A stretch of 44,791 bases of DNA, taken from positions 1 to 44,791 of the IMG/VR virus record IMGVR_UViG_3300034272_002468; one strand, 5' to 3'. The first letter of the stretch is position 1. The number at the start of each line of letters is the position of its first letter. The notes beneath the pieces are model-generated. The model made no database searches, had not been told where the DNA came from, and was given only the letters and a program-made list of their open reading frames with translations. The stretch is from a virus. Made by a program: the position numbers and the translations under genes. Of this stretch, positions 26,260-40,234 are shown one piece after another.

Positions 26260-29200
26260 ACGGCTTTATTTTGAATTGAAATTGGCCAAAATTGAGACAA
26301 GTAATTATTCTTCTGATAACTATGAATTGCATAGTTACTACCTGAGAATGGAGTTAAAGTACTTTCAAATAACAAAACTTCTCCACTTTCAGTAGTTCCA
26401 GATCCATCGGATGTTGCAGTGAAGATAGTTCCTACACCATATCCATCTGGAGCACCATAATCTTTCCAGTTAACAGATCCAAGAGTCTTAATTATATATG
26501 TTACCTCAGATTGAATATCGCCTGAGTTTGCAGTTTTTTCAAATGATGATGTGGTATCAAACATTTCTCTTGTGCATTGCAAAAATTGAGTTTCAGTTTT
26601 ATCTTTATAATAGATAATCTCTTCTCCAAGGTAATAATGATATAGTGTCTCATTTCTTGTTTCTGGGTTCACATCTTTCTTCACAATGAATTTTGGAATA
26701 ATCAAATACCCAGCAGAAATAAAATCATGAGTACTATTTACAGTAATAGTAGTATCTGATGTTTTTAGTTCTTGAGTAAGCTTTGCATATGGAGGTTCAT
26801 CCATATATGGGTTACCCTTGTTCTTGACTGCACTTGAAAGATTTTTGCTGACTTCATTTACTCTAAAATTTAAAATTTTATCAAAGGTAACTTGGTAGTT
26901 TGTATCATTACCATGCCAGAAGGTAGTTGGTGCTGGTCCTGCTGCCCATGCAGTAGTACTACCTCCAATTGGTGGAGCTGGGAAAGCAACTGCAGAAATA
27001 GTTACTGTAGTAATAAATCCTTCACCATCAACATTAACATTAGCTTGCCAACCAGTTCCACTTGATGGAGATATGCTGCCCGTCCAGCGAGGAATAGATT
27101 TGATCTGAATTTCTATGTTATTGGCATCAGAATCTGGGAATAATGCAGAATCATCAACAAAACTAAAGTCTTCAATAACGTATTCTAAAGATTTAAATCT
27201 AGGTGGAATACGATATGCAGCTTCAGTTTTAAATACTTGACTAGATTTATCTTCACCTTCAATCAGTGGAGGTAGATTTGGAATAGTTGTTTTCTTTGGT
27301 ACAGATCCACCAATAGTTTCAATAGCTCTCAATAGAGTGTTTTGCAGCGAATTTTCATTGGAAATGACTTGTTTGTACATTTCCTCAGGTAAATTGATGT
27401 TTGCAAAATTAAAACTATTCTGTAAATTTGATGTAATGATACCCTCAAGTTCTTCTTTACTGTAAGTTTTAGGTGTTTTTACATCAACACATGGATCAAA
27501 GTTAGTATCATTTTGAATTGGTGCAATATATTCATTAAAAGTCTTAAATTCACTGTGCGGATAGTAGACTTTTGAGTAGTCTGGAGTAACATTGTTATCG
27601 CATTCAGAGTCTTTTACTGCTTGGACAGTACGAGTTCCTAATTTTAATCTCTCAGTATCAACAATTTCTCTTTGAATGGTAAGAAAATCAGATGAAGAAA
27701 GCTTAGAAATCCAACTGTCAAGCTCATTTTTCTCTGCAGGGCGATTAAAATACGTCCAAAATACATTGTTTACCTCATATGCAGCATCATTTGCAGGAGA
27801 AACACATAAAAATTGCTGCTGTAAGTAATAACTATCATCACTTAGAATAACACTACCCAGTATAAACTTACCTAATTCATCTTCTAAGTAAGTAGATTCG
27901 CAGAATCCATCTCTAGAATAGAATAATGGTGTATAAGTATAGAACTTTTTATCATTACTGACATAAACTCCACATACTGCAGACCTATCAATAATGCCTT
28001 TGCCAGCAATAACCTGAATTCTGTTCTCTGGAATTATTGCACTATTCTGAACTCTGGTTACATTCCACCCACGAACAAAGGTATTGTTTTTATTATCTTG
28101 TTTTTTAAACCAAACCTTAAAGCTTTTGCTGTCTACTACTTCAATTTGTGATACAAAAACAAAAGATTCTTCTACTCCAGATGCAGTTTGATCATCAGTA
28201 ATAGAAATTTGAATATCATTATTGTCACTAATAGTAGTTTCATCTAAGAATGTAACTAGATAATACTTTCTATTATCAGAATCATTAGAACCACCTTCAT
28301 CATTTTTATTCTTTGCTTGTATTCTAATATCCTTAGTTGTAGTTAACTGAATATCTTTGTTCTTGTTATCATCAAAAACATGATAAACAGGACTAGTATA
28401 TTGAGGAGTACTAGGAGTATTTTTAGAATAGTATTGATCCTTCACAAATGGAGCACTGCCCCCACTAATCTCTGCATAACATAAGATTTGGTTTGAAATG
28501 TTATTTGCAAGACCAGTATTAGTAAATTTTACGTTTCTAACCTTTTTCTTGTTTTTATACTTAAGAGGTTTAGTAAGAAAGATTTTGAGTCCTTGAATAC
28601 TATCTACGTAGGTCTCTTTTTGAATGCCATACCCAATAACTTTATCACCAACATTGATAATTCTATCCTCTGCTCCGTCGTTTTTGTTAATGAAGATAAA
28701 CCCAGGAGTCTTATTATTCTCAGAAACTTTAGAGACTCTTCTTCTAACGGACTCTGTGGTTCTCAGAGATTTCTCGTCAAAGTGCTCAGAGTTATAGTTA
28801 ACTACTTTGTTTACTGTCCAACCATTGATGATATCACCAACAGCAATCATATCTTTATTGGTGGTATTCTCATAGTAAAAGAATATCTTATTGTCGAGTG
28901 TACCGCCATGGTATGCAATACTACCTTCAGGTAGGCCAATTACTTGACTGTCTACTCTAGCAAGTGTGAATGTACCGCTAACACTTGTACTGGATACTGC
29001 ATATTCTGGGCAAGGTGCTGGTGCCTCAGGATCTGTACTCGGTGGTGGAGTAGTTACAGTAATACCTCCCACAGGACGTGCAGGAAGTGTATGAGTTAAT
29101 GGCCACTCAAAGATATGATAGAAGTATTGTTCGTCGTATACTTTATCTGCTTTGCAATATCTTTCATAGACTGGTCTACTCTTGATATCATCACCAGAAC

Positions 29201-29504
29201 CAATAATCTCATATTCTGGTTGATAAAATACTTGATCAACAAAGTTTACATTCTCGCCATTAGAATTCTCTGTATCAATGGCAGGAACTTGAATTACAGT
29301 TCTGCGAAGCTTTTCTTGCTTACTGCCATTCTGTATAGTTTTATTTGCAGCATCAGGTGGTCTTACTTCGTACCAGTATTTCTCAATATAAGGAAAAGTT
29401 ATAGTTATCTGAGCTGGTGGTTGTCCTTCTGGTGCTGGACATTCGGAATATGTAAAAGTTAATTCTGCATCCTTGGGATCTTTTTTTGGACTACAATTAG
29501 CCAT
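26256..29504 (-). CDS. Large virion protein of the baseplate region, unknown function
   Basis: The 1082-aa product is translated together with the PAAR spike tip, so it is probably a baseplate or spike component. Seen in the sequence: an N-terminal Pro/Cys segment (CSPKKDPKD, then YSECPAPEGQ), long beta-rich stretches, a helical segment near residues 572-610 (VFWTYFNRPAEKNELDSWI) resembling DUF4214-type repeats, and near residues 915-1000 a segment TTITVNSTHDF ... EEIIYYKDKTETQFLQC shared with gp7. The N-terminus has the form seen in cyanophage structural proteins. Specific role not determined. Confidence 0.7.
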   Translation of the reverse strand: MANCSPKKDPKDAELTFTYSECPAPEGQPPAQITITFPYIEKYWYEVRPPDAANKTIQNGSKQEKLRRTVIQVPAIDTENSNGENVNFVDQVFYQPEYEIIGSGDDIKSRPVYERYCKADKVYDEQYFYHIFEWPLTHTLPARPVGGITVTTPPPSTDPEAPAPCPEYAVSSTSVSGTFTLARVDSQVIGLPEGSIAYHGGTLDNKIFFYYENTTNKDMIAVGDIINGWTVNKVVNYNSEHFDEKSLRTTESVRRRVSKVSENNKTPGFIFINKNDGAEDRIINVGDKVIGYGIQKETYVDSIQGLKIFLTKPLKYKNKKKVRNVKFTNTGLANNISNQILCYAEISGGSAPFVKDQYYSKNTPSTPQYTSPVYHVFDDNKNKDIQLTTTKDIRIQAKNKNDEGGSNDSDNRKYYLVTFLDETTISDNNDIQISITDDQTASGVEESFVFVSQIEVVDSKSFKVWFKKQDNKNNTFVRGWNVTRVQNSAIIPENRIQVIAGKGIIDRSAVCGVYVSNDKKFYTYTPLFYSRDGFCESTYLEDELGKFILGSVILSDDSYYLQQQFLCVSPANDAAYEVNNVFWTYFNRPAEKNELDSWISKLSSSDFLTIQREIVDTERLKLGTRTVQAVKDSECDNNVTPDYSKVYYPHSEFKTFNEYIAPIQNDTNFDPCVDVKTPKTYSKEELEGIITSNLQNSFNFANINLPEEMYKQVISNENSLQNTLLRAIETIGGSVPKKTTIPNLPPLIEGEDKSSQVFKTEAAYRIPPRFKSLEYVIEDFSFVDDSALFPDSDANNIEIQIKSIPRWTGSISPSSGTGWQANVNVDGEGFITTVTISAVAFPAPPIGGSTTAWAAGPAPTTFWHGNDTNYQVTFDKILNFRVNEVSKNLSSAVKNKGNPYMDEPPYAKLTQELKTSDTTITVNSTHDFISAGYLIIPKFIVKKDVNPETRNETLYHYYLGEEIIYYKDKTETQFLQCTREMFDTTSSFEKTANSGDIQSEVTYIIKTLGSVNWKDYGAPDGYGVGTIFTATSDGSGTTESGEVLLFESTLTPFSGSNYAIHSYQKNNYLSQFWPISIQNKAV

Positions 29505-29516: not shown

Positions 29517-29699
29517 TCAGTCTCCTACTTTATGTATGCGAATACCAGGAGTATCATGATGATCAAAGTATTCAAATTCTAAAGTATCACCCTCAATCCA
29601 TTGCATTTCATCGAGAATCTCATCGGGGAATGTAATGAAATATTCGCCAGATTTATTATCGTACTGTACTTCTGTGGTAAATGAAGAAAATGTAGACAT
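29517..29699 (-). CDS. AbrB/MazE-like small DNA-binding protein
   Basis: The 60-aa product resembles the SpoVT-AbrB swapped-hairpin domain: residues 18-33 read GEYFITFPDEILDEMQW, then EGDTLEFEYFDHHDTPGIRI, matching the pattern 'x-x-I-x-x-P-x-x-h-x-x-x-h-x-h-x-x-G-D-x-L-x-h'. Such domains bind DNA as dimers and act as repressors or antitoxins. It begins a minus-strand late operon and faces the plus-strand gene at 29758, so it could regulate either. No toxin partner is visible next to it. Confidence 0.6.
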   Translation of the reverse strand: MSTFSSFTTEVQYDNKSGEYFITFPDEILDEMQWIEGDTLEFEYFDHHDTPGIRIHKVGD

Positions 29700-29716
29700 A
29701 GTTTGTGTAATAACAT

Positions 29717-29738
29717 AATTTATATAGTTGCATAAATA
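29717..29738. promoter_or_regulatory. Divergent late promoter pair
   Basis: A minus-strand TATAAATT (29724-29717) lies 18 bp before the AbrB-like gene, and a plus-strand CATAAATA (29731-29738) lies 20 bp before the 184-aa gene. Their octamers are separated by only six bases. Confidence 0.6.
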
Positions 29739-29757
29739 ATTAAAAATTTCAACAAGT

Positions 29758-30312
29758 ATGTATAATTTATCAGAATCATATTTGAACGTTTATAACTTAG
29801 ATGAAAATGTATCTGGTGGTAGAGCCACTAGGGCAAGTTTTGGTGGTATTTCTCAAAGAACTTCTTCTGCAGAAGCTAGTAGAATTAGATCTGCTGGTCA
29901 TGAAGCTAAACTTAACAAAATGAGTAAAGAGCCATCTAAAGGTGGTGTACCCAGAGATTCTGCAAGTCTAAGTAAAAAAAGAACTCCAGAAAAAGCAGCA
30001 CAAGATAAAAAGAAAAGCTTACCAAATGTATTGCCTCATATGAGAAAAACTCCAGCACAGCAAAGAACTGGAGAAAGAAATACTAATATTAGAGGAGCAT
30101 TATCAGATACTCGCTGGGGAACTCGTGCAGCTAATTATGACTGGAGACAACAGAAAAGAGCTGAAAGAAGTAAAAGACTAGGACTTAATAAAGAAGACAT
30201 TGAATATATTTTAGATTATCTAGTATATGAAGGATATGCAAATAGTTATGATACAGCATGTAATATTTGCGAACATATGTCCGACGATTGGATATTAAAT
30301 ATTTTAGACTAA
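29758..30312 (+). CDS. Basic protein with LxE N-terminus, possible packaged virion protein
   Basis: This is the only well-supported plus-strand gene. The 184-aa product starts MYNLSESYLNVYNLDENV, which has L-S-E and L-D-E motifs that resemble sites cut by T4-type prohead protease gp21. Residues 20-140 are strongly basic and Ser/Gly-rich, and the C-terminal 40 residues (YILDYLVYEGYANS, then CEHMSDDWILNIL) form a helical acidic domain that I recognise from several cyanophage small virion-like proteins. It lies behind a late octamer and ends at a terminator. A role as an internal head protein is an inference. Confidence 0.75.
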   Translation: MYNLSESYLNVYNLDENVSGGRATRASFGGISQRTSSAEASRIRSAGHEAKLNKMSKEPSKGGVPRDSASLSKKRTPEKAAQDKKKSLPNVLPHMRKTPAQQRTGERNTNIRGALSDTRWGTRAANYDWRQQKRAERSKRLGLNKEDIEYILDYLVYEGYANSYDTACNICEHMSDDWILNILD

Positions 30313-30320
30313 TTGTTTAT

Positions 30321-30353
30321 TCCGAGAACTTAAAAAGTTTTCGGATTTTTTTT
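30321..30353 (+). terminator. Rho-independent terminator (plus strand)
   Basis: An 11-bp stem with one G-U pair (TCCGAGAACTT / AAGTTTTCGGA, loop of 3) is followed by eight T. It ends 9 bp after the 184-aa gene. Confidence 0.85.
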
Positions 30354-30358
30354 GTGTA

Positions 30359-30394
30359 AAAATTTTTCCGAGATTATTTTAAATGTCTCGGAAA
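30359..30394 (-). terminator. Terminator (minus strand) for the HNH gene
   Basis: TTTCCGAGA (30365-30373) pairs with TCTCGGAAA (30386-30394), and on the minus strand the stem is followed by AATTTTT. It lies downstream of the HNH gene and faces the plus-strand terminator, so two convergent messages are separated here. Confidence 0.6.
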
Positions 30395-30456
30395 GACATA
30401 GAGTAATATATGATAATTGCTCTCGGAGACTTGTGTTTGTTGGGAGAGGCATAATT

Positions 30457-31047
30457 TTAAATTTTTTTTAGTTTGGCGCAAGAACTTCCAGAGGAGATTG
30501 CATTATGTAAACTTTTGGCAAAAGCTTTTGGAGTTTTTGTTCTTGTTCTTAACTGAATCCAATTCCAATTATCTTCAATCCAACCAGTTAAATTTGTACC
30601 ACTATAAACTTCTCCAGTAATTCCATCTAAAAGTTTAAATTGTTTTGCAGTAATTTTAATCATATTCTCTTTTCTAGAGACCCACTTTAAATTATTTGCA
30701 TGGTTGTTTAATTTATTAGAGTCAATGTGGTCAATTTCTTTGTACTTATGTGGATTTTCTAAGAAACATTCTGCTATTAATCTATGCACATAATATTTTA
30801 TTTGCTTTTCAGTTTTCCCCTCGGCATTTTTTAGAGAAATATTAATGGCTAGATACCTATCAGTTGGATTACTTCCACCTCTTGGGTGTTGTTTTAATTC
30901 TCTAAGGCTTCCTTTTTTAGAGATACATCCAGAAGTTCCTTTAATATGTGTTGAATACCATTCAGTGAAAACTTTACCATCTTCTGAAACATAATAACCA
31001 TCGAACTTTGTGGGTAAAATTTTCTGGGAAAAATTTTTTTGATTCAT
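30457..31047 (-). CDS. HNH homing endonuclease (NUMOD4 plus HNH_3 type)
   Basis: Residues counted from the ATG at 31047. Residues 17-29 (DGYYVSEDGKVFT) fit a NUMOD4 motif, and the C-terminal half has an HNH core with HRLIAECFLENP followed by IDHIDSNKLNNHANNLKWVS (H-x...D-H-x-D ... N-x-x-N-L). Such enzymes cut unlearned alleles and copy themselves into the break. The frame stays open upstream to a GTG at 31203, adding 52 residues of which the first ~32 are encoded by GC-rich DNA unrelated to the family, so I chose the ATG at 31047, 196 aa. The junction to GC-rich DNA lies about 60 bp upstream of the start. Confidence 0.85.
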   Translation of the reverse strand: MNQKNFSQKILPTKFDGYYVSEDGKVFTEWYSTHIKGTSGCISKKGSLRELKQHPRGGSNPTDRYLAINISLKNAEGKTEKQIKYYVHRLIAECFLENPHKYKEIDHIDSNKLNNHANNLKWVSRKENMIKITAKQFKLLDGITGEVYSGTNLTGWIEDNWNWIQLRTRTKTPKAFAKSLHNAISSGSSCAKLKKI

Positions 31048-31165
31048 TGAGTATATCGAAGTCGATGGATAAGGTTTATAGCTTATATAGTATCTATTTT
31101 TTTCACGGCCCGGCGGGCCGGCGACCCATAAGGCCCGCTTATACTGCCCTGCCCGACTGATCAGG

Positions 31166-31241
31166 ACTGCTGATGGATCAGGAATGCTGATCTGTCTTGC
31201 CACTGGCTGATAAGCACTGCTGATGGATCAGGAATGCTGAT
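31166..31241. repeat. 26-bp direct repeat, two copies 50 bp apart
   Basis: ACTGCTGATGGATCAGGAAT followed by GCTGAT occurs at 31166-31191 and again at 31216-31241, in the 227-bp gene-free stretch between the HNH gene and the first island gene. GATCAG/CTGATC motifs are dense throughout 31150-31280. Confidence 0.85.
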
Positions 31242-31274
31242 GGAAGGGGCCAGCCTGGCTAGCCCCGTTGCTGA

Positions 31275-31442
31275 TCAGGCCAACTCTAGCCAGCCATCCA
31301 CATAGGTGTTCACTCCGAACACTAGGGCTGCAGCCTTGGCCTCAGCCTGCTGGCGGGTCTCGGCCTTAATGCTGATAAGCTCAGCCATCAGCTCGGCGGT
31401 CTCGGGTGCGGGGTAGAAAGCGGTGAAGGTAAAGGTGGCCAT
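31275..31442 (-). CDS. 55-aa unknown protein of the GC-rich island
   Basis: The frame runs from ATG 31442-31440 to TGA 31277-31275, beginning MATFTFTAFYPAPETAELMA and ending VFGVNTYVDGWLELA. The mix of beta N-terminus and helical Ala/Glu middle suggests a small folded protein. Its leader contains the 12-bp palindrome at 31459-31470 and a -10-like TACAAT. Function unknown. Confidence 0.6.
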   Translation of the reverse strand: MATFTFTAFYPAPETAELMAELISIKAETRQQAEAKAAALVFGVNTYVDGWLELA

Positions 31443-31458
31443 TGGGGTTCTCCCTTGG

Positions 31459-31475
31459 TTGACTAGTCAATTGTA
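31459..31475 (-). promoter_or_regulatory. -10 element with overlapping palindrome (possible operator)
   Basis: The minus strand reads TGCTACAAT (extended -10, TACAAT at 31475-31470), and a perfect palindrome TTGACTAGTCAA (31459-31470) follows at the expected start site. No good -35 is visible. The gene starts 17 bp further on. Confidence 0.5.
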
Positions 31476-31514
31476 GCACGGATGGGGCCAGCCTGGCCAG
31501 CCCCTGGCTGCTGA

Positions 31515-31739
31515 TCAGTCAGCCGATGCAGCCGCTAGCAGTTCGGCGATCTGATCAAACCGATCCCACGCTGCCTTGCCCACGGCGCTGCAGCCGCTGG
31601 GGGTAAGGTCTGGCCGACGACCCTCTACGGCATCCCGCCAGAGGCTGTGCCAGCGTGTTGCGGCGTCAGCTAGCTGGCTTTGCAGCTGGCGGGCCTCGTT
31701 ACGGGTGAGGGTCAGTGTGATAGTGGTTTGCTTAGCCAT
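31515..31739 (-). CDS. 74-aa unknown protein of the GC-rich island
   Basis: The product starts MAKQTTITLTLTRNEARQL, a pattern of a short Thr-rich strand then a helix, and continues with an amphipathic helix rich in Ala, Arg and Trp (LADAATRWHSLWRDAVEG). Coding bias for GC at third positions fits the island. It lies between the 55-aa and 61-aa genes in the same orientation. Function unknown. Confidence 0.65.
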   Translation of the reverse strand: MAKQTTITLTLTRNEARQLQSQLADAATRWHSLWRDAVEGRRPDLTPSGCSAVGKAAWDRFDQIAELLAAASAD

Positions 31740-31801
31740 GGTTCGGGTGTGGTTGATCGGTGGAAGTGGAAGGGGAGGCCCGGAGGCCTCCCGTGTGGGG
31801 G

Positions 31802-31987
31802 TCAGGCTAGGACTCGGTTCAGCCTGTTGTGGAGCGCCTGGGCGCAGAATTGGCCCCGGATCCCCATGGTGAGGGATGCCCCACGGTGAGGGATCAGATC
31901 CACCCAGGCGGTGGCCCCGCTCCGCCAGATGGCAAGGCGGAAGCCCAGGGCGTGAAGGGCGGTGATGTCGGCGGCGTTGTGGGTCAT
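31802..31987 (-). CDS. 61-aa unknown protein of the GC-rich island
   Basis: The product begins MTHNAADITALHALGFRLAI and has a Trp/Ala-rich middle, with a compact mixed alpha/beta look. A near-consensus promoter and a leader hairpin lie directly upstream (32002-32058). A GC hairpin (GGGAGGCC / GGCCTCCC) follows near 31774-31791. Function unknown. Confidence 0.65.
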   Translation of the reverse strand: MTHNAADITALHALGFRLAIWRSGATAWVDLIPHRGASLTMGIRGQFCAQALHNRLNRVLA

Positions 31988-32001
31988 GGTCTCGGGGTTG
32001 T

Positions 32002-32058
32002 GGGGGACCGTTTGCCCCCGTTGAAAGAATTATAGAGGGTGGAAGGGCCAGCTGTCAA
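32002..32058 (-). promoter_or_regulatory. Near-perfect sigma70 promoter plus leader hairpin (copy 1)
   Basis: On the minus strand TTGACA (32058-32053), an 18-bp spacer and TATAAT (32034-32029) match the consensus at both hexamers. The leader then forms the hairpin GGGGG ... CCCCC (32019-32002) 14 bp before the ATG at 31987. Copy 2 is at 32378-32434. Confidence 0.8.
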
Positions 32059-32076
32059 TCAGCTGGCCTGTATGGG

Positions 32077-32361
32077 TCACCAATCGCTGGGGTCGTACTG
32101 ATCACAGAGCCAGTCGGCCCGCTCAGCTTCTGTCATTGGCCTAGTGAGGCTGAGCGGGCCGCAGGCCCAGATCTCAGCTTCCTCGCCTTGCTCAACCGGG
32201 CAGGCCCAGCTGAGAATCATCCCAGAGGGGAGATACAGCCACGCCCTGGTGGGCTGGCCAGCCTTGGTATCCACATAGAGCCAGTGGATCACTGTCTGAA
32301 ACTTAGGGGGAAGCTGGAGCTGGCCCACGGTGCAAGGGGTGAACAGATCAGCAGTTTGCAT
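32077..32361 (-). CDS. 94-aa unknown protein of the GC-rich island
   Basis: The start is ATG 32361-32359 (MQTADLFTPCTVGQLQL), because an upstream GTG at 32403 lies only about two bases after the -10 box of its promoter. The product has a beta-rich middle (IHWLYVDTKAGQPTRAW, then LSWACPVEQGEE) and an acidic C-terminus ending DWLCDQYDPSDW. Function unknown. Confidence 0.62.
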   Translation of the reverse strand: MQTADLFTPCTVGQLQLPPKFQTVIHWLYVDTKAGQPTRAWLYLPSGMILSWACPVEQGEEAEIWACGPLSLTRPMTEAERADWLCDQYDPSDW

Positions 32362-32377
32362 GGTCTCGGGTGGTAGT

Positions 32378-32434
32378 GGGGGACCGTTTGCCCCCGTGAT
32401 CACAATTGTAGAGGGTGGAAGGGCCAGCCGTCAA
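32378..32434 (-). promoter_or_regulatory. Sigma70 promoter plus leader hairpin (copy 2)
   Basis: TTGACG (32434-32429), an 18-bp spacer and TACAAT (32410-32405) on the minus strand are followed by a GGGGG/CCCCC hairpin (32395-32378) with the same loop as copy 1. Spacer and leader are nearly identical in sequence to copy 1. Confidence 0.75.
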
Positions 32435-32452
32435 GCAGCTGGCCCGATGGGC

Positions 32453-32776
32453 TCAAACTGTGGCGTTGCGATCCTGGCTCCAGTCCCGGAGCCGGCGAGT
32501 GCTGGCCTTGCTGAACACCCGGTCCCCAATGGTGCGGCCATCAGCCAGGGTGATTACAGAGCGCCCAGCGGCGTCAGCCGCTATCTGCAGAGCCTGGCGG
32601 CCAAGCTTGCGCTCTGCAGGCAGAGCGGTGGGGCTCTCCCACAGATCCAGCAACCATTGGGCACGATGCCGGCCAACGATGCAGCCGGTTTTGATCGTGA
32701 CCTTGGCTACTGCCACAGCCACGGGGGTGGGGATGCTGGTGCGGGTGAGGCGGTCAGAGCGGTTGGGGTTTGCCAT
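32453..32776 (-). CDS. 107-aa basic unknown protein of the GC-rich island
   Basis: The product starts MANPNRSDRLTRTSIPTPV and has a central helical part (RHRAQWLLDLWESP, LGRQALQIAADAAGRSV). The Arg-rich composition would suit DNA binding, but this is not shown by any motif. GC-rich codon use and minus orientation fit the island. Function unknown. Confidence 0.62.
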   Translation of the reverse strand: MANPNRSDRLTRTSIPTPVAVAVAKVTIKTGCIVGRHRAQWLLDLWESPTALPAERKLGRQALQIAADAAGRSVITLADGRTIGDRVFSKASTRRLRDWSQDRNATV

Positions 32777-32790
32777 GTTCCTGGGGGTGT

Positions 32791-32824
32791 GCGGGCTCCT
32801 GTCGGCCCGCTTGATGTAATTGTA
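32791..32824 (-). promoter_or_regulatory. -10 box and leader hairpin before the 107-aa gene
   Basis: A minus-strand TACAAT (32824-32819) is followed by the 6-bp hairpin GCGGGC/GCCCGC (32810-32791), then CAGGAAC and the ATG. No convincing -35 is seen. The arrangement -10, hairpin, start repeats that of the two neighbouring genes. Confidence 0.5.
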
Positions 32825-32875
32825 GGGGATGGGGGGACCCTGCCTATGGGTCAGGCCCCGGATTGTTGCAATCTG

Positions 32876-33157
32876 TCACACTGACGGCAACCCAGCAACC
32901 CAGGCTGCTGCAGCCGCCAAGCTGGAGAACTCAGCTCCCACGCTGGGGCATTGCCAGACGCTAAAGCAGCGGCGCTCCCATTGGCCGGCGTCATTGTGAT
33001 CGTATGGGGCGTCTACCATAACGCTCACAACCTGATCCACTCGGATCAAGTGAACCCAGCCACGGCGGCCCCTGATGGCGGCCTGCCAGTCCCGAACCCA
33101 GCGGCGCTGGCCGGGAGCTGGAGAGAAGACGGCTGGGCGGGAAGCTTGGCTGATCAT
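32876..33157 (-). CDS. 93-aa unknown protein of the GC-rich island
   Basis: The product begins MISQASRPAVFSPAPGQRRW, has a Trp-rich middle and a beta-rich part (WVHLIRVDQVVSVMVDAP), and ends in an Ala-rich helix. A -10-like TATACT is at 33187-33182, 25 bp upstream of the ATG, with no clear -35. Function unknown. Confidence 0.6.
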   Translation of the reverse strand: MISQASRPAVFSPAPGQRRWVRDWQAAIRGRRGWVHLIRVDQVVSVMVDAPYDHNDAGQWERRCFSVWQCPSVGAEFSSLAAAAAWVAGLPSV

Positions 33158-33244
33158 GGCTGAATGCCTCAGGACTCATTAAGTATACAGACTAGGAAGG
33201 GCCAGCCGTGGCTGACTGACCCGGTTTGTTGCAAAGCTTAATCT

Positions 33245-34003
33245 CTACACTTTGCTGGTGAGAATCGGCTGAAGCTCTTTACGATAGCCTCCGAACTTAC
33301 CAGCCCGGCGGCGTGCAAACAATGCTTTGCCGTAGGTTGAACCTTTAGGCTGGGTTGAATGCACAAGCAAAGCAAACGGATTGTCGCCGAAACAGTGGCT
33401 ATCATCATGATCAACCTCTAAACCCAAAGCCTCAGCTTCCTCGTCATTGTGAACCACTTTACTATAACGAGGGAACAAACCTTCGTCGATCATGTGATCG
33501 AACTTGCCCCCATAGCTGGCGGTCATGTAGAAGTTAGAAGGCAACTCCAAACCTACAAACAGCGGCAGGTTCTTGCTGTAGCAGTAGAACTTGAGATCAG
33601 GATTAAGCTTGGCAACCTCTAGCCAAGCGAGCAAGTAAGCGAGGCTAAAGAAGTCGCCGGACTCGTGAATTCTCACCAGCTCGATCCTTTTAGTGCGAGC
33701 ATTCTGCAGGCTGGTGTTCAACAACTCTACAGCAGTGCTGGCCTTAATCGCATCTGCGATTAGCTGGAGATTGCGAGCCCGAGAGAAAAACGGGCCATCG
33801 TATTGTGCCTCGCTGGTTGCAGCAAAGCACCGAAACTGAGTTTGCGGGCCGTCTTGAATGTGGCGCTTGCCGTTCTCACCAACAACAGCAAAGCTCAGGC
33901 AGAAAAGGGCACCGGGGCAGGTCTTGCCTGCCGGCAGGTTGAAAATCAGAGTTTGCTTGCCAAGCTTGGCGTTGCCGGTGGAAAAGGTCAGCAGATCAGA
34001 CAT
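33245..34003 (-). CDS. Phage 'gene product 88' type protein (GP88-like)
   Basis: The 252-aa product has the recognised pattern of the GP88 family: an N-terminal FSTGNAKLGKQTLIFNLPAG (residues 7-26), CPGALFC (29-35) with two Cys, then RIHESGDFFSLAYLLAWLEV (about 110-129) and FYCYSKN. The last ~100 residues include DHDDSHCFGDNPFALL with another Cys. GP88 proteins are known from mycobacteriophages and other phages, but their activity is not established. The moderate GC places this gene at the right end of the GC-rich island. Confidence 0.7.
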   Translation of the reverse strand: MSDLLTFSTGNAKLGKQTLIFNLPAGKTCPGALFCLSFAVVGENGKRHIQDGPQTQFRCFAATSEAQYDGPFFSRARNLQLIADAIKASTAVELLNTSLQNARTKRIELVRIHESGDFFSLAYLLAWLEVAKLNPDLKFYCYSKNLPLFVGLELPSNFYMTASYGGKFDHMIDEGLFPRYSKVVHNDEEAEALGLEVDHDDSHCFGDNPFALLVHSTQPKGSTYGKALFARRRAGKFGGYRKELQPILTSKV

Positions 34004-34083
34004 GGGTCTGTGTCGGTGGTTGACTTGAAAATCTTAGCAGGTGGGAAGGGCCAGGCTGGCCGGCCCTGTAACAAAATGAAATA

Positions 34084-34248
34084 CTATACTTTAGCCAGGC
34101 AATTGTCGATAAAGACAAACAGCTCGCCCAGGTCAATGGTAGAGTTAACCCAGCGAACAGCAGAGCCATATTCAGCCAAGAATTCATCAGCAACTAGACA
34201 CCCAGCTGCAAAGTCTAGGGCTTCAAAATAGCTTAGGGTCGGGTTCAT
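34084..34248 (-). CDS. 54-aa acidic unknown protein
   Basis: The frame starts at ATG 34248-34246 and ends at TAG 34086-34084. It begins MNPTLSYFEALDFAAGCLVA and ends FVFIDNCLAKV. It is acidic and helical with two Cys. A 65-codon frame overlapping it at 33996-34193 gives less natural protein and runs through the end of the GP88-like gene's promoter. Function unknown. Confidence 0.55.
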   Translation of the reverse strand: MNPTLSYFEALDFAAGCLVADEFLAEYGSAVRWVNSTIDLGELFVFIDNCLAKV

Positions 34249-34283
34249 TGGTGTGCCTGCAAGTGCCTGTTAATCCTACAGCA

Positions 34284-34309
34284 ATGGGTGAGCCCGAAGA
34301 CTCACCCAT
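34284..34309 (-). terminator. Perfect 9-bp hairpin, possible terminator
   Basis: ATGGGTGAG (34284-34292) pairs with CTCACCCAT (34301-34309). It separates the 63-aa gene (34327-34518) from the 54-aa gene, but it lacks a strong U-tract, so it may be a processing signal or part of a leader instead. Confidence 0.4.
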
Positions 34310-34326
34310 GTAACATTATGTAATAT

Positions 34327-34518
34327 CTACATCTCCAGCTGCCAATCTTGGTCTTTAAGTATATTTACCCAAAAGAAGTTTCGTCCATTCATACTACGCA
34401 GGAACACTTTGTCTCCTTTGTGTTGTTCTACAATACAATGTTCGCATGATTCCATTAGATTAGCGAACCTGTTTTTAGCTTTCTTTGAGATTGGCTTAAC
34501 CGAAATCATCGGATCCAT
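34327..34518 (-). CDS. 63-aa unknown protein, early gene
   Basis: The product starts MDPMISVKPISKKAKNRFAN and has C-x-x-C-like spacing (ESCEHCIVEQ) and an amphipathic C-terminus ending WQLEM. Its leader includes the palindrome at 34540-34559. Function unknown. Confidence 0.6.
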   Translation of the reverse strand: MDPMISVKPISKKAKNRFANLMESCEHCIVEQHKGDKVFLRSMNGRNFFWVNILKDQDWQLEM

Positions 34519-34539
34519 GATGAGACTTTGCGATTGATT

Positions 34540-34559
34540 ATGCTTAATAATTTAAGCAT
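34540..34559. promoter_or_regulatory. Palindrome with TAAT loop
   Basis: ATGCTTAA and TTAAGCAT form perfect 8-bp arms around TAAT. The motif TTAATAAT recurs here, as in other early intergenic regions, so this could be an operator or an RNA hairpin in the leader of the 63-aa gene. Confidence 0.45.
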
Positions 34560-34600
34560 GATGAGAGCAGCAATGAGTTCAGCTGTCACAATTTGTTATA

Positions 34601-34646
34601 GTTAATAATTTGGTGGGGAGTTGCCTCCCCGTGTATAGTTAATAAT
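34601..34646 (-). terminator. GC hairpin flanked by AGTTAATAAT direct repeats
   Basis: A 6-bp stem (GGGGAG/CTCCCC, loop TTGC; 34615-34630) lies between two copies of GTTAATAAT (34601-34609 and 34638-34646). It directly follows the stop of the 87-aa gene on the minus strand. Terminator or RNA-processing signal; there is no U-tract. Confidence 0.45.
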
Positions 34647-34910
34647 TTAGACAGTAACAGTTACTAATTCTTCAGTCTTTCGGCCATCAGCAATGGTAGA
34701 ACCAATGCTAACATCTTTCAGCATCTGATCATTAGTAAGCAAATCACTCAGGAATTGTGCATAAGACTCACTACATGTGAATGTGTATGCTTTGTCTACA
34801 TTGCTGTGATAAGTGATAATAATATCAGTATTGTCTACAGTAATGGAATGAATGGCACTGGACTGTTCTTTAGTAAACTGACGGTGAACAGGAGAGATTG
34901 CAACGGTCAT
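34647..34910 (-). CDS. 87-aa unknown protein, early gene
   Basis: I place the start at ATG 34910-34908 (MTVAISPVHRQFTKEQSSAI). The frame opens upstream to a TTG at 34970, but that TTG is the first base triplet of the promoter -35 box TTGACA, so it cannot be a start. The product is Thr/Ser/Val-rich and beta-like with a short C-terminal helix. Function unknown. Confidence 0.65.
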   Translation of the reverse strand: MTVAISPVHRQFTKEQSSAIHSITVDNTDIIITYHSNVDKAYTFTCSESYAQFLSDLLTNDQMLKDVSIGSTIADGRKTEELVTVTV

Positions 34911-34940
34911 GGTGTTCTGTGTGTTGTGTGTACAGTTAAT

Positions 34941-34970
34941 AATGTAGCTGGTGGGGGCTGAGGTTGTCAA
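34941..34970 (-). promoter_or_regulatory. Sigma70-like promoter
   Basis: TTGACA (34970-34965), an 18-bp spacer, and TACATT (34946-34941) on the minus strand. A TTAATAAT motif lies just downstream. Confidence 0.75.
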
Positions 34971-34986
34971 CCCCTTTGGGCCAGTT

Positions 34987-35121
34987 TCAGAATTGGATCT
35001 CGTCTAGAGTTGGCTCTGCAGAGTTTGTATCATCGTCTGCAGTCAACATGTCCAGAATCGAGAGAATCTCATTGCCAGTTTGGCCTTTACGAAGCATTGA
35101 AATCAGAACTGCTGTAGACAT
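34987..35121 (-). CDS. 44-aa unknown acidic protein
   Basis: ATG 35121-35119 to TGA 34989-34987. It begins MSTAVLISMLRKGQTGNEIL and ends SAEPTLDEIQF. Helical start, acidic end. It lies 5 bp after the next gene's stop in the same orientation, indicating co-transcription. Function unknown. Confidence 0.55.
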   Translation of the reverse strand: MSTAVLISMLRKGQTGNEILSILDMLTADDDTNSAEPTLDEIQF

Positions 35122-35126
35122 AATAA

Positions 35127-35261
35127 TCAATAATCGTAGTTGGAGTTAATGAAAGCAACAAAATGTTGCTGGGCTTCGGCATCATCATCAGCAGGAATCA
35201 GCATATCATCCTGCCAATCATAAACCTCAGCTTCAAGTTCAACGAAATCGTAGGTGTCCAT
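35127..35261 (-). CDS. 44-aa very acidic unknown protein
   Basis: ATG 35261-35259 to TGA 35129-35127. It begins MDTYDFVELEAEVYDWQDDM and ends FVAFINSNYDY. About a quarter of residues are Asp or Glu, compatible with a DNA-mimic or inhibitor-type protein, but this is only a possibility. It follows a strong promoter. Function unknown. Confidence 0.55.
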   Translation of the reverse strand: MDTYDFVELEAEVYDWQDDMLIPADDDAEAQQHFVAFINSNYDY

Positions 35262-35283
35262 TGGTTCAGTAGTGAACATTGAT

Positions 35284-35313
35284 AATGTAGCTGGTAGGGG
35301 TTGGACTTGTCAA
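35284..35313 (-). promoter_or_regulatory. Sigma70-like promoter
   Basis: TTGACA (35313-35308), an 18-bp spacer and TACATT (35289-35284) on the minus strand. GGGGTTG and CAACCCC flank the -35 box, so it could also sit in a hairpin as RNA. Confidence 0.75.
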
Positions 35314-35338
35314 CCCCTTTGGGCCGGTTTCAGAACTG

Positions 35339-35506
35339 TCAGTCTAGGCAACCGTTGGCGTTCAGCCAGCCAGCACACCAGCCCTCACCAGTGTAGCATC
35401 CGACATAGTAGTTGCCAATTGAAATACCAAACTGTTCTTCCATGTGGTAGGTATTCTTCAGATCCCAACCGAGATAGAAGAACTTGGTGTGAATGGAGAA
35501 TTTCAT
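35339..35506 (-). CDS. 55-aa unknown Trp/Cys-rich protein
   Basis: ATG 35506-35504 to TGA 35341-35339. It begins MKFSIHTKFFYLGWDLKNTY and ends with GWCAGWLNANGCLD. It is rich in aromatic residues (4 Trp-type positions with several Tyr and Phe) and has 3 Cys, an unusual composition for such a small protein. Function unknown. Confidence 0.55.
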   Translation of the reverse strand: MKFSIHTKFFYLGWDLKNTYHMEEQFGISIGNYYVGCYTGEGWCAGWLNANGCLD

Positions 35507-35529
35507 GGTCTTGTGTGGTTGACTTGTTC

Positions 35530-35559
35530 AGTATGGCATGGGTTGGGGGCTGGTGTCAA
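35530..35559 (-). promoter_or_regulatory. Sigma70-like promoter
   Basis: TTGACA (35559-35554), an 18-bp spacer and CATACT (35535-35530) on the minus strand. The -10 is a weaker match. GGGGGTTG and CAACCCCC flank the -35. Confidence 0.7.
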
Positions 35560-35584
35560 CCCCCTGATTGATTAGTAATACTAA

Positions 35585-35767
35585 TCAGACATCATAACAG
35601 AGGTATTCCATCATCTCTTCTTTATACATTGCAGTCTCAGCTTCAGTGTTAAATTTAACACCTGCGAGGAAGTTGTAATGGTCAACCCAAGATGCACACC
35701 ATGTCATTTTGTAGTCATGATTTGCAACTGAGTTGTACTGATTGCAAGTGTCGAGAATCAGAGCCAT
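35585..35767 (-). CDS. 60-aa unknown protein, early gene
   Basis: The product begins MALILDTCNQYNSVANHDYK and contains WCASWVDHYNFLAGV, a Trp/Tyr-rich core with two Cys. It ends with acidic MEYLCYDV. It lies behind its own promoter (35796-35824), whose -35 box includes the TGA stop of the next gene upstream. Function unknown. Confidence 0.6.
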   Translation of the reverse strand: MALILDTCNQYNSVANHDYKMTWCASWVDHYNFLAGVKFNTEAETAMYKEEMMEYLCYDV

Positions 35768-35795
35768 TGGAGTGGTTCAGAAGTGAACAAAGGTA

Positions 35796-35824
35796 ACTTA
35801 ACCGATTTTCAGGGTCCTGTCAAC
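35796..35824 (-). promoter_or_regulatory. Sigma70-like promoter
   Basis: TTGACA (35824-35819), a 17-bp spacer and TAAGTT (35801-35796). The TGA of the neighbouring gene (35822-35820) lies inside the -35 box. Confidence 0.7.
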
Positions 35825-36026
35825 CCTCTGACTGATTAGCTGTCCTTATGGTGTTGATAAGGGTTGCTAATTCAGTTTCATCTAATCCCAGAACATATTC
35901 TTCAATTACATTCTCCATGAATGTGTAGTTGTTACTATAGAGCTGTTCTTGTAGCAGTTCGATAGCTTCGTCTTGATTCATGGAATGTAGATTAAAGAAA
36001 CTAATCACTTCAGTGTAGTCAACCAT
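35820..36026 (-). CDS. 68-aa acidic unknown protein, early gene
   Basis: Start ATG 36026-36024 (MVDYTEVISFFNLHSMNQDE). It overlaps the TGA of the 52-aa gene by one base (TGATG). The product is acidic and helical (EAIELLQEQLYS, ETELATLINTIRT). Function unknown. Confidence 0.62.
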   Translation of the reverse strand: MVDYTEVISFFNLHSMNQDEAIELLQEQLYSNNYTFMENVIEEYVLGLDETELATLINTIRTANQSEG

Positions 36027-36184
36027 CAATAATCACTCCCATCATTATAATGATCATAATTAGCCATTACAGCTGCAATAGCATTATAATAACCCGCCTG
36101 GGAGTTATCATAAAAGATCTTTGCTAGTGATGCAATTAGGGCTTCCAAAGAAGGTCTCTCAGGGACATATGCAATATAGGCCAT
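36026..36184 (-). CDS. 52-aa unknown protein, start uncertain
   Basis: ATG 36184-36182 to TGA 36028-36026. It begins MAYIAYVPERPSLEALIASL. The first codons overlap the -10 of a good promoter (36173-36201), so transcription from that promoter would begin downstream of this ATG. Either a further upstream promoter is used, or the real start is an in-frame TTG near 36148, or the promoter is unused. Confidence 0.45.
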   Translation of the reverse strand: MAYIAYVPERPSLEALIASLAKIFYDNSQAGYYNAIAAVMANYDHYNDGSDY

Positions 36185-36201
36185 TTTCGGGTGCCTGTCA
36201 A
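36173..36201 (-). promoter_or_regulatory. Sigma70-like promoter overlapping a start codon
   Basis: TTGACA (36201-36196), a 17-bp spacer and TATATT (36178-36173) on the minus strand. Predicted transcription start is near 36166, within the 52-aa frame and about 140 nt before the 68-aa gene. Confidence 0.55.
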
Positions 36202-36338
36202 GTGGTGAATGATTAGCAATGCTTATGGGTGTATGATGTATAGTTAATAATCTCTGATATTAGCAATACTAATCGGAGGGGCTCGGAATGATTTGGAGTC
36301 CTTATGGGTTTTTTGATGGGTTTTTTGGGCCGGGGGGC

Positions 36339-36367
36339 TTGACAAATTCGGCGTGATGTGGTATACT
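36339..36367 (+). promoter_or_regulatory. Plus-strand sigma70 promoter
   Basis: TTGACA (36339-36344), a 17-bp spacer and TATACT (36362-36367) match the consensus closely. It is the only strong promoter pointing to the right in the early region and faces no convincing protein gene. Confidence 0.7.
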
Positions 36368-36386
36368 GCGGGCCAAGACTGCTGAA

Positions 36387-36425
36387 CCTCCGAACCTTTC
36401 TGAGACAATCAGACACATTCGGAGG
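36387..36425 (+). ncRNA. Candidate structured RNA (nested hairpins)
   Basis: CCTCCGAA (36387-36394) pairs with TTCGGAGG (36418-36425), and TCTGA (36399-36403) pairs with TCAGA (36409-36413) inside it. Starting about 20 nt after the plus-strand promoter, this could be the 5' part of a small RNA that runs into the tandem repeats and antisense to the AP2-like gene. Confidence 0.35.
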
Positions 36426-36532
36426 TATACAGTATATACTTAATAATCTATCACATATACTTGGAGGTATACAGTATATACTTAATAATCTATCACATAT
36501 ACTTGGAGGTATACAGTATATACTTAATAATT
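36421..36532. repeat. 42-bp tandem repeat, 2.7 copies
   Basis: Units at 36421-36462 and 36463-36504 look identical, and a partial third starts at 36505. Each unit begins GGAGGTATACAGTATATAC and contains TTAATAATC. The 409-bp gap 36185-36593 holds this repeat, the plus-strand promoter and a nested hairpin, but no convincing gene. Protein frames across it merely translate the repeat. Confidence 0.85.
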
Positions 36533-36593
36533 CTCTCTCTCTATACACATCACAAACTTATATTTTTTATTACATTTAATATAATGTTAATAA

Positions 36594-37193
36594 TTACTTA
36601 TATCCATACTCACCTTTCCGCATCACTTCTATCCATCTATTCAATCCATCAATGATTCTTTGATCTGTTTCTTGTGGTAGATAATAATCTTGTATACACT
36701 TTATCTTTGCATTGAGATATGCTTGATATGCTTCTTCTAATGTATAAAAATACCCAAGATGAACTCGTTTTGCATTCATATAAATTTTGACATAAAATGG
36801 TTTAGTTTTGTTGGTATTAACTCGACTAACTCCAGTTACATATTTGGTAGTAGATTTACGATGTAAAAGAAGGTTTAATCGTTGGTCTACAAATACACAT
36901 TTATCTGGTCCATAAACTTTATTGCCAGGATACATTATATCCTTATCTAATTGTTTACCTAGTACATTACCTTGCTCTAGATACCATTTTCTGAAATTGG
37001 AGAATGTATGCCATTCTGGTGTTACACTACAACCTTCATAAGATGAATACCTAGGATTGTTAGAATAGCACCTTTCTAGCATTTTCGACCAACTACTATA
37101 GGCAGGACAGAATACACTTTTACCATTTATACATGGTCGAACAGTATAATCAGCATCATTAACACCTATCCCACACACAAGTTTTTTCTTCAT
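36594..37193 (-). CDS. AP2-like mobile/homing-endonuclease-type protein
   Basis: The 199-aa product matches a widespread phage family usually found next to homing endonucleases. It has SSWSKMLERCYSNN then YEGCSVTPEWHTFSNFRKW in the first half, DKDIMYPGNKVYGPDKCVFV in the middle, and an AP2-like C-terminal segment (GVSRVNTNKTKPFYVKIY, then HLGYFYTLEEAYQAYLNAK). AP2 domains bind DNA; the first half could carry nuclease activity, but no HNH triad is clear. It is 4 bp downstream of the 112-aa gene. Confidence 0.75.
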   Translation of the reverse strand: MKKKLVCGIGVNDADYTVRPCINGKSVFCPAYSSWSKMLERCYSNNPRYSSYEGCSVTPEWHTFSNFRKWYLEQGNVLGKQLDKDIMYPGNKVYGPDKCVFVDQRLNLLLHRKSTTKYVTGVSRVNTNKTKPFYVKIYMNAKRVHLGYFYTLEEAYQAYLNAKIKCIQDYYLPQETDQRIIDGLNRWIEVMRKGEYGYK

Positions 37194-37197
37194 AAGT

Positions 37198-37536
37198 TCA
37201 TTTCTTTTTGTTGGTTAGTTCAATTCGCTTTATGATTTCTGCTTGTTCGTCTTCTCTATCTGCTTCTGCCTTCTTGTTAGCATGATACCTTGCTACTCTA
37301 TCTCTTTCTGCCTGTAGTCTTTCTTTTTGACTTTGATTTAATTGCCTTTGTCTTTCTGATACATCTTCACCGAGTTTGTATTCTCTTGGGCCTCGGTCTG
37401 GATTTTTGTCAATATACTTCTGCACTGCCTTAGCACCGATTCCACCTTGTTTCTTTAATTGCTTCTCGATGTGCTTCTTAGAGTACAATGGTTTGACTTT
37501 CTTTGCTTCTTCTAGAAATTGCTTAAAAGTAATCAT
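37198..37536 (-). CDS. Basic helical protein with LEE prohead-type N-terminus
   Basis: The 112-aa product starts MITFKQFLEEAKKVKPLYSK. The 'T-F-K-Q-F-L-E-E' start is a recurring N-terminus in cyanophage head-associated proteins and holds an L-X-E site like those cut by T4-type prohead protease. The rest is a highly charged, Arg/Lys/Glu-rich single helix (residues 55-110). Candidate for an internal head protein. Confidence 0.7.
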   Translation of the reverse strand: MITFKQFLEEAKKVKPLYSKKHIEKQLKKQGGIGAKAVQKYIDKNPDRGPREYKLGEDVSERQRQLNQSQKERLQAERDRVARYHANKKAEADREDEQAEIIKRIELTNKKK

Positions 37537-37563
37537 TTTGAATGTTTTTGAAGGGCTATGATG

Positions 37564-37571
37564 TATTTAGT
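37564..37571 (-). promoter_or_regulatory. Possible late promoter, ACTAAATA
   Basis: The minus-strand octamer ACTAAATA differs from the late consensus at two positions. It lies about 28 bp upstream of the 112-aa gene and would fit its late, head-type character. Confidence 0.4.
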
Positions 37572-37584
37572 TGGAATGGGAGTT

Positions 37585-37731
37585 TTAGTGTGAAAAACTA
37601 GTGTTTTTTGGTCGTAAATACTGAGCTTTGAGGTGGTTCAGAGATTGCTTCCTAGCCTTGAGTTTGCCTTTGCAGGTGCCTTTTGTGCTTTTTGGTTTGT
37701 TAGAGTGATGTTGCCAATTTGGTGTTATCAT
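37585..37731 (-). CDS. 48-aa basic protein, possible
   Basis: ATG 37731-37729 to TAA 37587-37585. It begins MITPNWQHHSNKPKSTKGTC and ends LRPKNTSFSH, with about 13 Lys/Arg/His and no acidic residue. No ribosome binding site is visible, so it is uncertain. The terminator at 37741-37770 lies directly before it. The rest of the gap between 37537 and 37862 shows nothing else I can support. Confidence 0.4.
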   Translation of the reverse strand: MITPNWQHHSNKPKSTKGTCKGKLKARKQSLNHLKAQYLRPKNTSFSH

Positions 37732-37740
37732 GGGATTTTG

Positions 37741-37770
37741 AAATAAAAACCACTCTGGTGTGGAGTGGTT
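37741..37770 (-). terminator. Rho-independent terminator (minus strand)
   Basis: AACCACTC (37748-37755) pairs with GAGTGGTT (37763-37770), followed on the minus strand by TTTATTT. It ends the four-gene operon 37863-38708. Confidence 0.75.
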
Positions 37771-37862
37771 GATGTTTGCTTATTTAGTTTTGGTATAGGT
37801 ATGATAGGTACCAAAGATCTTAATAGTTTTTGGCTTTGGATTGTGGTGATAGGGTTTTTTAC

Positions 37863-38135
37863 TCATAGTGTTTGTACCTCGTTCAGAATGTTGTTAATGT
37901 CAGTTTCATCTTGGTGGCCTAATACATCTTCCGTGATAGGTGTATCATAGCACAGTTCATATTTATCTGGTGTGCCTTTCAGAATAGCTATTTCATATAG
38001 ATCATCTTGAAATCCATAGGAACCAGGAAAGCGTACTACAGATACACCATAACCATTAGGGAAAAAGTGTACTGCCTGAATGCCATCATCCTTGAAATAC
38101 GGATGTGATTCAAAGTTCAAATCAGTGAAGTTCAT
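37863..38135 (-). CDS. 90-aa unknown protein
   Basis: Start ATG 38135-38133 (MNFTDLNFESHPYFKDDG), overlapping the TGA of the upstream gene as ATGA. The product is beta-rich with GYGVSVVRFPGSYGFQDD, then LYEIAILKG, and a C-terminal helix. This looks like a small soluble domain. Function unknown. Confidence 0.62.
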   Translation of the reverse strand: MNFTDLNFESHPYFKDDGIQAVHFFPNGYGVSVVRFPGSYGFQDDLYEIAILKGTPDKYELCYDTPITEDVLGHQDETDINNILNEVQTL

Positions 38136-38708: not shown

Positions 38709-38733
38709 GGGTGGTTCCCTTGACTACCTTTGT

Positions 38734-38762
38734 ATATTAGCCCACCTGGGGCGGAAGGTCAA
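38734..38762 (-). promoter_or_regulatory. Sigma70-like promoter inside the end of the upstream gene
   Basis: TTGACC (38762-38757), a 17-bp spacer and TAATAT (38739-38734) on the minus strand, largely inside the 3' end of the 61-aa membrane-protein gene. Confidence 0.65.
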
Positions 38763-40233: not shown

Positions 40234-40234
40234 G

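What the first reader, a model, noticed from the sequence alone, without database searches (positions are those of the whole stretch)
31107..34080. GC-rich island of small unknown genes inside an AT-rich phage
Composition changes sharply near 31,107, about 60 bp from an HNH endonuclease start, and declines by steps toward 34,100. The genes are all on the minus strand and include a GP88-like gene. They use the same sigma70 promoter style as the neighbouring early genes, so the island seems to be integrated into the phage's expression programme rather than an inert insertion.
Basis: partly seen in the sequence, partly recalled or inferred. Interest (0 to 1): 0.6.

Follow-up and report, generated by a model that had tools for sequence, protein, structure and literature searches.

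The report
GC-rich swappable gene-cassette array in cyanophage
An AT-rich virus of freshwater-type cyanobacteria carries a short, GC-rich row of small early genes, each with its own promoter and RNA hairpins, and its close relatives swap these genes one at a time at those control elements.

Summary
The GC island is real. GC jumps from 31% to 63% at 31,104, then steps down at about 33,225 and 34,308. It is not a misassembly: ten related IMG/VR contigs carry the same GC step at the same place.

It is the 3' end of the small early-gene (hyperplastic) region between a helicase and the gp25/gp6 baseplate genes of a T4-like cyanophage. It is an array of one-gene cassettes. Most genes are preceded by a hairpin overlapping a sigma70-type promoter, matching published PeSL (promoter-early stem-loop) cassettes. 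Five close relatives hold different genes in the same slots, and homology breaks at the intergenic control regions.

Two elements had no match in Rfam or in papers I could search: (i) a 5'-leader hairpin with an 8-nt loop motif (31 forward, 1 on the opposite strand) before unrelated small genes, absent from 300 Cyanobiaceae genomes; (ii) a nearly invariant noncoding block exactly at the GC step in 11 distinct contigs.

High GC is old: orthologs at 40-70% identity keep it, and the DNA has no host match. The mechanism is inferred: monocistronic early transcripts capped by hairpins, and cassette exchange by recombination at repeated control elements. Protein functions remain unknown. New variant of a known kind.

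The parts
33245..34003 (-). GP88-family gene (252 aa), GC 0.52; replaced by a DUF7227 gene in relative L193
   Evidence: PF17338 E 1.7e-41; 231 relatives in IMG/VR; AF2 model pLDDT 92 with no PDB match at E<=0.001 and matches to other GP88 models; DUF7227 in L193
34047..34067 (-). hairpin upstream of GP88, followed by -10 TAAGAT
   Evidence: upstream hairpin retained in 60 GP88 orthologs, mean z -1.42, t=-7.5
32876..33157 (-). g6, 93-aa cassette gene; present in L192/L188 and L193/L189, absent from L002, L191, L081, L004, L006, L008
32453..32776 (-). g5, 107-aa cassette gene, always downstream of GP88; 23 orthologs down to 40% identity, mostly GC3 0.55-0.87
   Evidence: mostly helical AF2 model, no PDB match
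32791..32810 (-). 5'-leader hairpin of g5 (GCGGGC-cgacagga-GCCCGC)
32421..32445 (-). PeSL-like hairpin with TTGACG, plus -10 TACAAT, before g4
32378..32395 (-). 5'-leader hairpin of g4 (GGGGG-caaacggt-CCCCC)
32077..32361 (-). g4, 94-aa cassette gene (ATG start just after the leader)
32046..32068 (-). PeSL-like hairpin with TTGACA; the promoter matches sigma70 consensus 12/12 (-10 TATAAT at 32,029-32,034)
32002..32019 (-). 5'-leader hairpin of g3
31802..31987 (-). g3, 61-aa cassette gene; its slot holds other genes in relatives
31773..31792 (-). hairpin (GGGAGGCC-tccg-GGCCTCCC) before g2
31515..31739 (-). g2, 74-aa cassette gene, present in L002, L191, L192, L193
31275..31442 (-). g1, 55-aa cassette gene, no relative found in IMG/VR
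31048..31274 (-). END element: conserved noncoding block at the GC step
   Evidence: over 110 bp nearly invariant in the five nearest phages, core in nine; marks the GC step in 11 distinct contigs
31120..31146 (-). core of END: CAGTATAAGCGGGCCTTATGGGTCGCC (TATAAG and TAAG..CTTA dyad)
   Evidence: pattern found once per contig in 15 IMG/VR stretches
31160..31241 (.). dyads ATCAG-N5-CTGAT (at 31160, 31177, 31227), found nowhere else in the window
30457..31047 (-). HNH homing-type endonuclease after END, absent from the five nearest relatives
   Evidence: PF13392 E 2e-9; PADLOC homing endonuclease E 3e-13
35296..35318 (-). PeSL-like hairpin and promoter (TTGACA-18-TACATT) before g12, in the adjoining AT-richer early genes
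35540..35562 (-). PeSL-like hairpin and promoter (TTGACA, CATACT) before g13

Best explanation
The island is the cassette array at the 3' end of the early, hyperplastic region of a T4-like cyanophage. Shown by sequence: each unit is one small gene followed by a GC-rich hairpin that overlaps the sigma70-type promoter of the next gene, and a subset of genes also carries a 5'-leader hairpin with an 8-nt loop of form C-R-A-N-N-G-G-W; related phages carry different genes in the same slots, with homology ending at these control regions. Inferred: host RNA polymerase transcribes each gene early as a short monocistronic mRNA; the downstream hairpin ends or protects its 3' end; the leader hairpin, at or near the 5' end, slows decay and/or sets translation; the repeated control elements are the sites where homologous or short-repeat recombination inserts, deletes and swaps genes. 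The products are probably host-takeover or counter-host proteins (inferred only from early-type promoters, small size and fast turnover). High GC is an old property of this cassette pool, kept by exchange among phages of GC-rich picocyanobacteria and/or by selection. END closes the array and is probably a regulated promoter or operator for the neighbouring block, or another replication or packaging landmark.
For: Hairpin over TTGAC plus a correctly spaced -10: 79 forward, 14 opposite strand, 17 in shuffles. GP88 upstream hairpin: 60 orthologs chosen by protein homology alone, mean z -1.42, t=-7.5; g5 leader hairpin: 15 orthologs, mean z -1.44, t=-4.4, with different stem sequences that still pair. 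Leader motif: 31 forward, 1 opposite, 0-1 in shuffles, before unrelated small genes in many contigs. Cassette orders: window GP88-g6-g5-g4-g3-g2-g1-END; L192 g6-g5-g4-z61-g2-y65-END; L193 DUF7227-g6-g5-z61-g2-END; L002/L191 GP88-g5-x69-g2-END; L081 GP88-g5-y66-END. 13 of 14 homology break positions lie in intergenic regions within 8 bp, the 14th 9 bp away; the g6 cassette is flanked by repeats TTGCAACAA(A/T)CCGGG that appear once in L002, L081 and L191. Relocation: g10 is upstream of GP88 in 8 records and downstream in 15. GC persistence. No host DNA match beyond short marginal pieces.
Against: No RNA, TSS or protein data. The hairpins before the -10 lack a U-run, so they may be weak terminators or not terminators at all. 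Breakpoints between genes are also expected simply because intact ORFs survive selection, so their position alone does not prove recombination at PeSLs. Some modules in the window (g1, g2, GP88) lack a clear TTGACA. Protein functions were not found by sequence or fold. The promoter of END is a guess; its RNA fold is unremarkable.
Confidence: 0.72

Rival explanations
1. A recent block insertion of host or other GC-rich DNA, perhaps brought by the neighbouring HNH homing endonuclease.
For: Abrupt GC step, HNH 60 bp from it, dinucleotide signature closer to one Cyanobium genome (0.087) than to the phage late genes (0.134).
Against: Orthologs at 40-70% identity are equally GC-rich in the same place; no host DNA match in 300 Cyanobiaceae genomes beyond short marginal pieces; strong-to-weak and weak-to-strong changes about balanced; the five nearest relatives have the step without the HNH.
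Confidence: 0.06
2. Codon selection: early genes must compete with host mRNAs and so keep host-like, GC-ending codons, while late genes drift AT-rich.
For: Early and late phage genes differ in codon use in about half of 14 phages studied (PMC5683454); island GC3 is 0.65-0.84 against about 0.2 in late genes.
Against: Intergenic DNA and hairpins in the island are also GC-rich (50-68%), and adjoining early genes with the same promoters are only about 40% GC, so codon selection alone does not suffice.
Confidence: 0.2
3. Assembly chimera joining an AT-rich phage to a GC-rich contig.
For: Sharp step only.
Against: The same END element and step in 11 distinct contigs, with conserved genes on both sides.
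Confidence: 0.01
4. The hairpins are operators (DNA dyads for a phage or host regulator) rather than RNA elements, and cassette exchange is ordinary illegitimate recombination filtered for intact genes.
For: The -35 lies within a dyad; terminator U-runs are missing; breakpoints between genes are expected under selection for intact ORFs.
Against: Stem sequences differ freely between modules while pairing is kept and TTGAC stays constant, unlike a fixed operator; the leader hairpin lies downstream of the -10; a 15-bp repeat flanks the g6 cassette.
Confidence: 0.2

Closest known systems
PeSL (promoter-early stem-loop) cassettes of T4-type phages (Arbiol 2010; Comeau 2014)
   Same: Sigma70-like early promoter joined to a stem-loop between small non-essential genes in a hyperplastic region; genes appear to be exchanged at these elements.
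   Different: Here in a cyanophage, for which the S-PM2 study reports a much lower PeSL density than in other T4-likes (PMC4503421). The -35 lies in the hairpin, stems are very GC-rich, no U-run, and a second, 5'-leader hairpin is present in a subset. The two primary PeSL papers were not held, so their details come from PMC4503421 and memory.
Cyanomyovirus hyperplastic / ORFanage regions (S-PM2, PMC4503421; g15-g18 region, PMC2984593)
   Same: A block of small orphan genes in a T4-like cyanophage, variable between close relatives.
   Different: Different position (between the helicase and gp25), with GC above 60%; isolates S-SRM01, Sf-FR1, B23, S-SSM7, S-SSM5 and P-HM2 have small early genes before gp25 but no peak above 60% there.
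5'-terminal stabilising mRNA hairpins (ompA type; from general knowledge)
   Same: A GC-rich hairpin a few nucleotides from the predicted transcription start of a short mRNA.
   Different: An 8-nt loop motif conserved across unrelated genes; effect untested; no Rfam match.
Synechococcus phage S-SRM01 (Kyanoviridae, Serangoonvirus)
   Same: Closest isolate by GP88 (70% aa; Sf-FR1 next at 65%), small-gene cluster before baseplate genes, hairpin and -10 before GP88.
   Different: Milder GC rise (45-52%), no leader-motif match in the stretch searched and no END core found.

Membership tests
PeSL cassettes | Early sigma70-like promoter joined to a stem-loop between genes | tested here: met
   79 forward vs 14 opposite vs 17 shuffled; alignment of modules; orthologous upstream hairpins, t=-7.5
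PeSL cassettes | Stem-loop acts as transcription terminator | not testable with these tools
   No U-run after these hairpins; needs a termination assay
PeSL cassettes | Gene gain, loss or replacement between close relatives with ends at the modules | tested here: met
   Five relatives, 13 of 14 ends within 8 bp of intergenic control regions; ORF integrity is a confounder
PeSL cassettes | Encapsidated mini-circles or other direct evidence of exchange | not testable with these tools
   Feature recalled from memory of Arbiol 2010; needs wet-lab data
T4-like cyanophage (Kyanoviridae or sister lineage) | gp25, gp6, gp15 structural genes and helicase-small genes-gp25 order | tested here: met
   PF04965, PF21379, PF16724; gene order as in isolates; gp6 only about 33% identical to isolates, so a deep lineage
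GP88 family (PF17338) | Pfam score above cut-off | tested here: met
   143 bits vs cut-off 24.4
Recently acquired genomic island | Absent or compositionally different in relatives, with a donor match | tested here: not met
Known Rfam element | Covariance-model match | tested here: not met
   No match at gathering or E<=1

The most novel reading that the evidence does not exclude
A lineage of freshwater-type T4-like cyanophages uses a portable control unit (promoter inside a hairpin plus a loop-conserved 5'-leader hairpin) as both expression unit and recombination port, keeps a GC-rich shared pool of small takeover genes inside an AT-rich genome, and closes the array with an almost invariant noncoding switch element (tandem ATCAG-N5-CTGAT dyads with a TATAAG core) at the boundary with the structural genes.
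Probability: 0.4. Interest if true: 0.72.

Novelty: new variant of a known kind. Interest (0 to 1): 0.57.

Why it matters
It suggests that PeSL-type gene shuffling operates densely in cyanophages, where a published study saw little of it, and gives near-base-pair examples of single-gene swaps between close relatives. It also provides a compact natural set of early genes, a searchable leader-RNA motif and a conserved boundary element, which make early takeover functions, phage mRNA stabilisation and the early/late boundary in cyanophages directly testable. The persistence of 60-66% GC within a 31% GC genome is a clear case of long-lived compositional patchiness in a virus.

Tried and rejected
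Recent host import: rejected. Misassembly: rejected. HNH as cause of the step: rejected. Known RNA family or tRNA in the island: none. Defence genes: PADLOC finds only the homing endonuclease. Function from fold: GP88 and g5 models give no PDB match at E<=0.001; GP88 resembles only other GP88-type viral models. Dinucleotide signature as test of origin: ambiguous, island intermediate between host and phage. Structured RNA in END: not supported, z +0.4 to -1.7. Pair counts on alignment A4 were not used as proof because the sequences had been chosen for pairing; the ortholog-based test replaced them. The two PeSL source papers could not be read.
Full report
What was checked. The window is a 44,791-bp IMG/VR virus fragment. 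Its minus-strand genes include T4-type gp15, gp6, gp25 and a PAAR-like protein, then a block of small genes up to a helicase at 40,981-42,273. That is the order seen in cultured T4-like cyanophages, although gp6 is only about 33% identical to theirs, so this is a deep, uncultured lineage. The DNA between the HNH start (31,047) and g1 is noncoding.

Not an artefact, not recent. A scan with GP88 returned 80 loci. L081, L002, L004, L006, L008 and L009 align on both sides and show the same GC-rich peak. A noncoding block at the step (END) recurs in 15 IMG/VR stretches. In the 11 distinct cases analysed, window included, GC is 57-64% on the array side and 31-40% on the other in every case where both sides were held. 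Orthologs of g4 (55-69% identical) have GC3 0.69-0.75, and those of g5 (mostly 40-94%) average GC3 0.70, with a few marine or more distant ones near 0.5. Inferred changes in the island run about equally towards and away from GC, whereas the late-gene rates would predict an excess towards AT; p is 0.002-0.03 in four of five partly overlapping comparisons, without correction for saturation. 300 Cyanobiaceae genomes give only short marginal DNA matches and two weak GP88 hits.

Anatomy of a cassette. In the intergenic regions a GC-rich hairpin follows the stop codon and, in many modules, contains the TTGAC of the next promoter, with a -10 box 15-19 nt after the -35 hexamer. This composite occurs 79 times on the gene strand, against 14 on the other strand and 17 in shuffled DNA; stems vary freely (GGGGCAGC/GCTGCCCC, GGGGCAAGC/GCTTGCCCC, GGGGAGGG/CCCTCCCC) while TTGAC stays. 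Sixty GP88 upstream regions, chosen by protein homology only, fold more stably than dinucleotide shuffles (mean z -1.42, t=-7.5). A second hairpin lies downstream of the -10 in a subset of genes: CAA-GCGGGS-CRANNGGW-SCCCGC-AC, 14-16 nt before ATG. It occurs 31 times forward and once on the opposite strand. It precedes unrelated small genes in GC-rich stretches and was found in 21 IMG/VR stretches and in none of 300 Cyanobiaceae genomes. In larger records it occurs 0-4 times, where present clustered at one locus. Leaders of g5 orthologs, again chosen by protein homology, keep a hairpin with different stems (mean z -1.44).

Cassette exchange. The gene order between GP88 and END is: window GP88-g6-g5-g4-g3-g2-g1; L192 g6-g5-g4-z61-g2-y65; L193 DUF7227-g6-g5-z61-g2; L002 and L191 GP88-g5-x69-g2; L081 GP88-g5-y66. 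Of 14 homology break positions 13 lie within 8 bp of an intergenic region and the last is 9 bp off; grouped, they form seven clusters. This also follows from selection for whole genes. More specific is the 15-bp repeat TTGCAACAA(A/T)CCGGG on both sides of the g6 cassette, present once in phages lacking g6. Over longer times cassettes move: g10 lies upstream of GP88 in 8 records and downstream in 15.

END. The block is nearly invariant over more than 110 bp in the five nearest phages, while neighbouring genes are about 70-95% identical; its core is kept in nine. It holds dyads ATCAG-N5-CTGAT that occur nowhere else in the window, and a core with TATAAG and a TAAG..CTTA dyad. Its RNA fold is unremarkable, so a DNA function (promoter/operator, origin or packaging site) is more likely; this is inference. 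After END come an HNH gene in the window, a 124-aa gene in L002, L191, L192 and L193, and no ORF found in L081.

Function. GP88 has a confident model (pLDDT 92) with no PDB match; its conserved Cys and RIHESGDF motifs are kept in the family. In L193 its place is taken by a DUF7227 protein that also scores weakly as GP88, which suggests one role filled by related proteins. The small proteins have no annotated relatives. That they act early on the host is inferred from promoters, size and turnover only.

Known and new. The units match what is reported for PeSL cassettes: promoter plus stem-loop, hyperplastic region, exchange at the units. Termination by the hairpin was not testable. The S-PM2 study (PMC4503421) states that its PeSL density is low compared with other T4-like phages; here it is high. 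The leader hairpin, the END element and the stable GC-rich pool are the parts for which I found no precedent, within the limits of the papers held.

Noticed in passing
window 26256-29504 versus 29517-42000: Mosaic genome: early genes are 92-98% identical to L081, whereas the structural gene at 26,256-29,504 is only about 70% identical to L081 but 84-92% to L192/L179; the switch lies near 29,500.
   Followed up: partly
upstream of GP88 in many loci, e.g. L071, L072, L059: A further inverted repeat, GTGNCA-N9/10-TGNCAC, lies just after the upstream stop codon and before the GC-rich hairpin; possible third hairpin or operator.
   Followed up: partly
L193:229-900: A DUF7227 gene replaces GP88 at the same position, a likely replacement by a distant relative.
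   Followed up: yes
window 36213-36548: Tandem copies of a motif reading LLSIYCIPPSICDR in an ORF of 111 aa; may be a repeat array rather than a gene.
   Followed up: no
window 30338-30445: Noncoding stretch including a strong terminator-like hairpin with a T-run, 85-92% identical in L081, L002 and L192 although the flanking genes differ.
   Followed up: no
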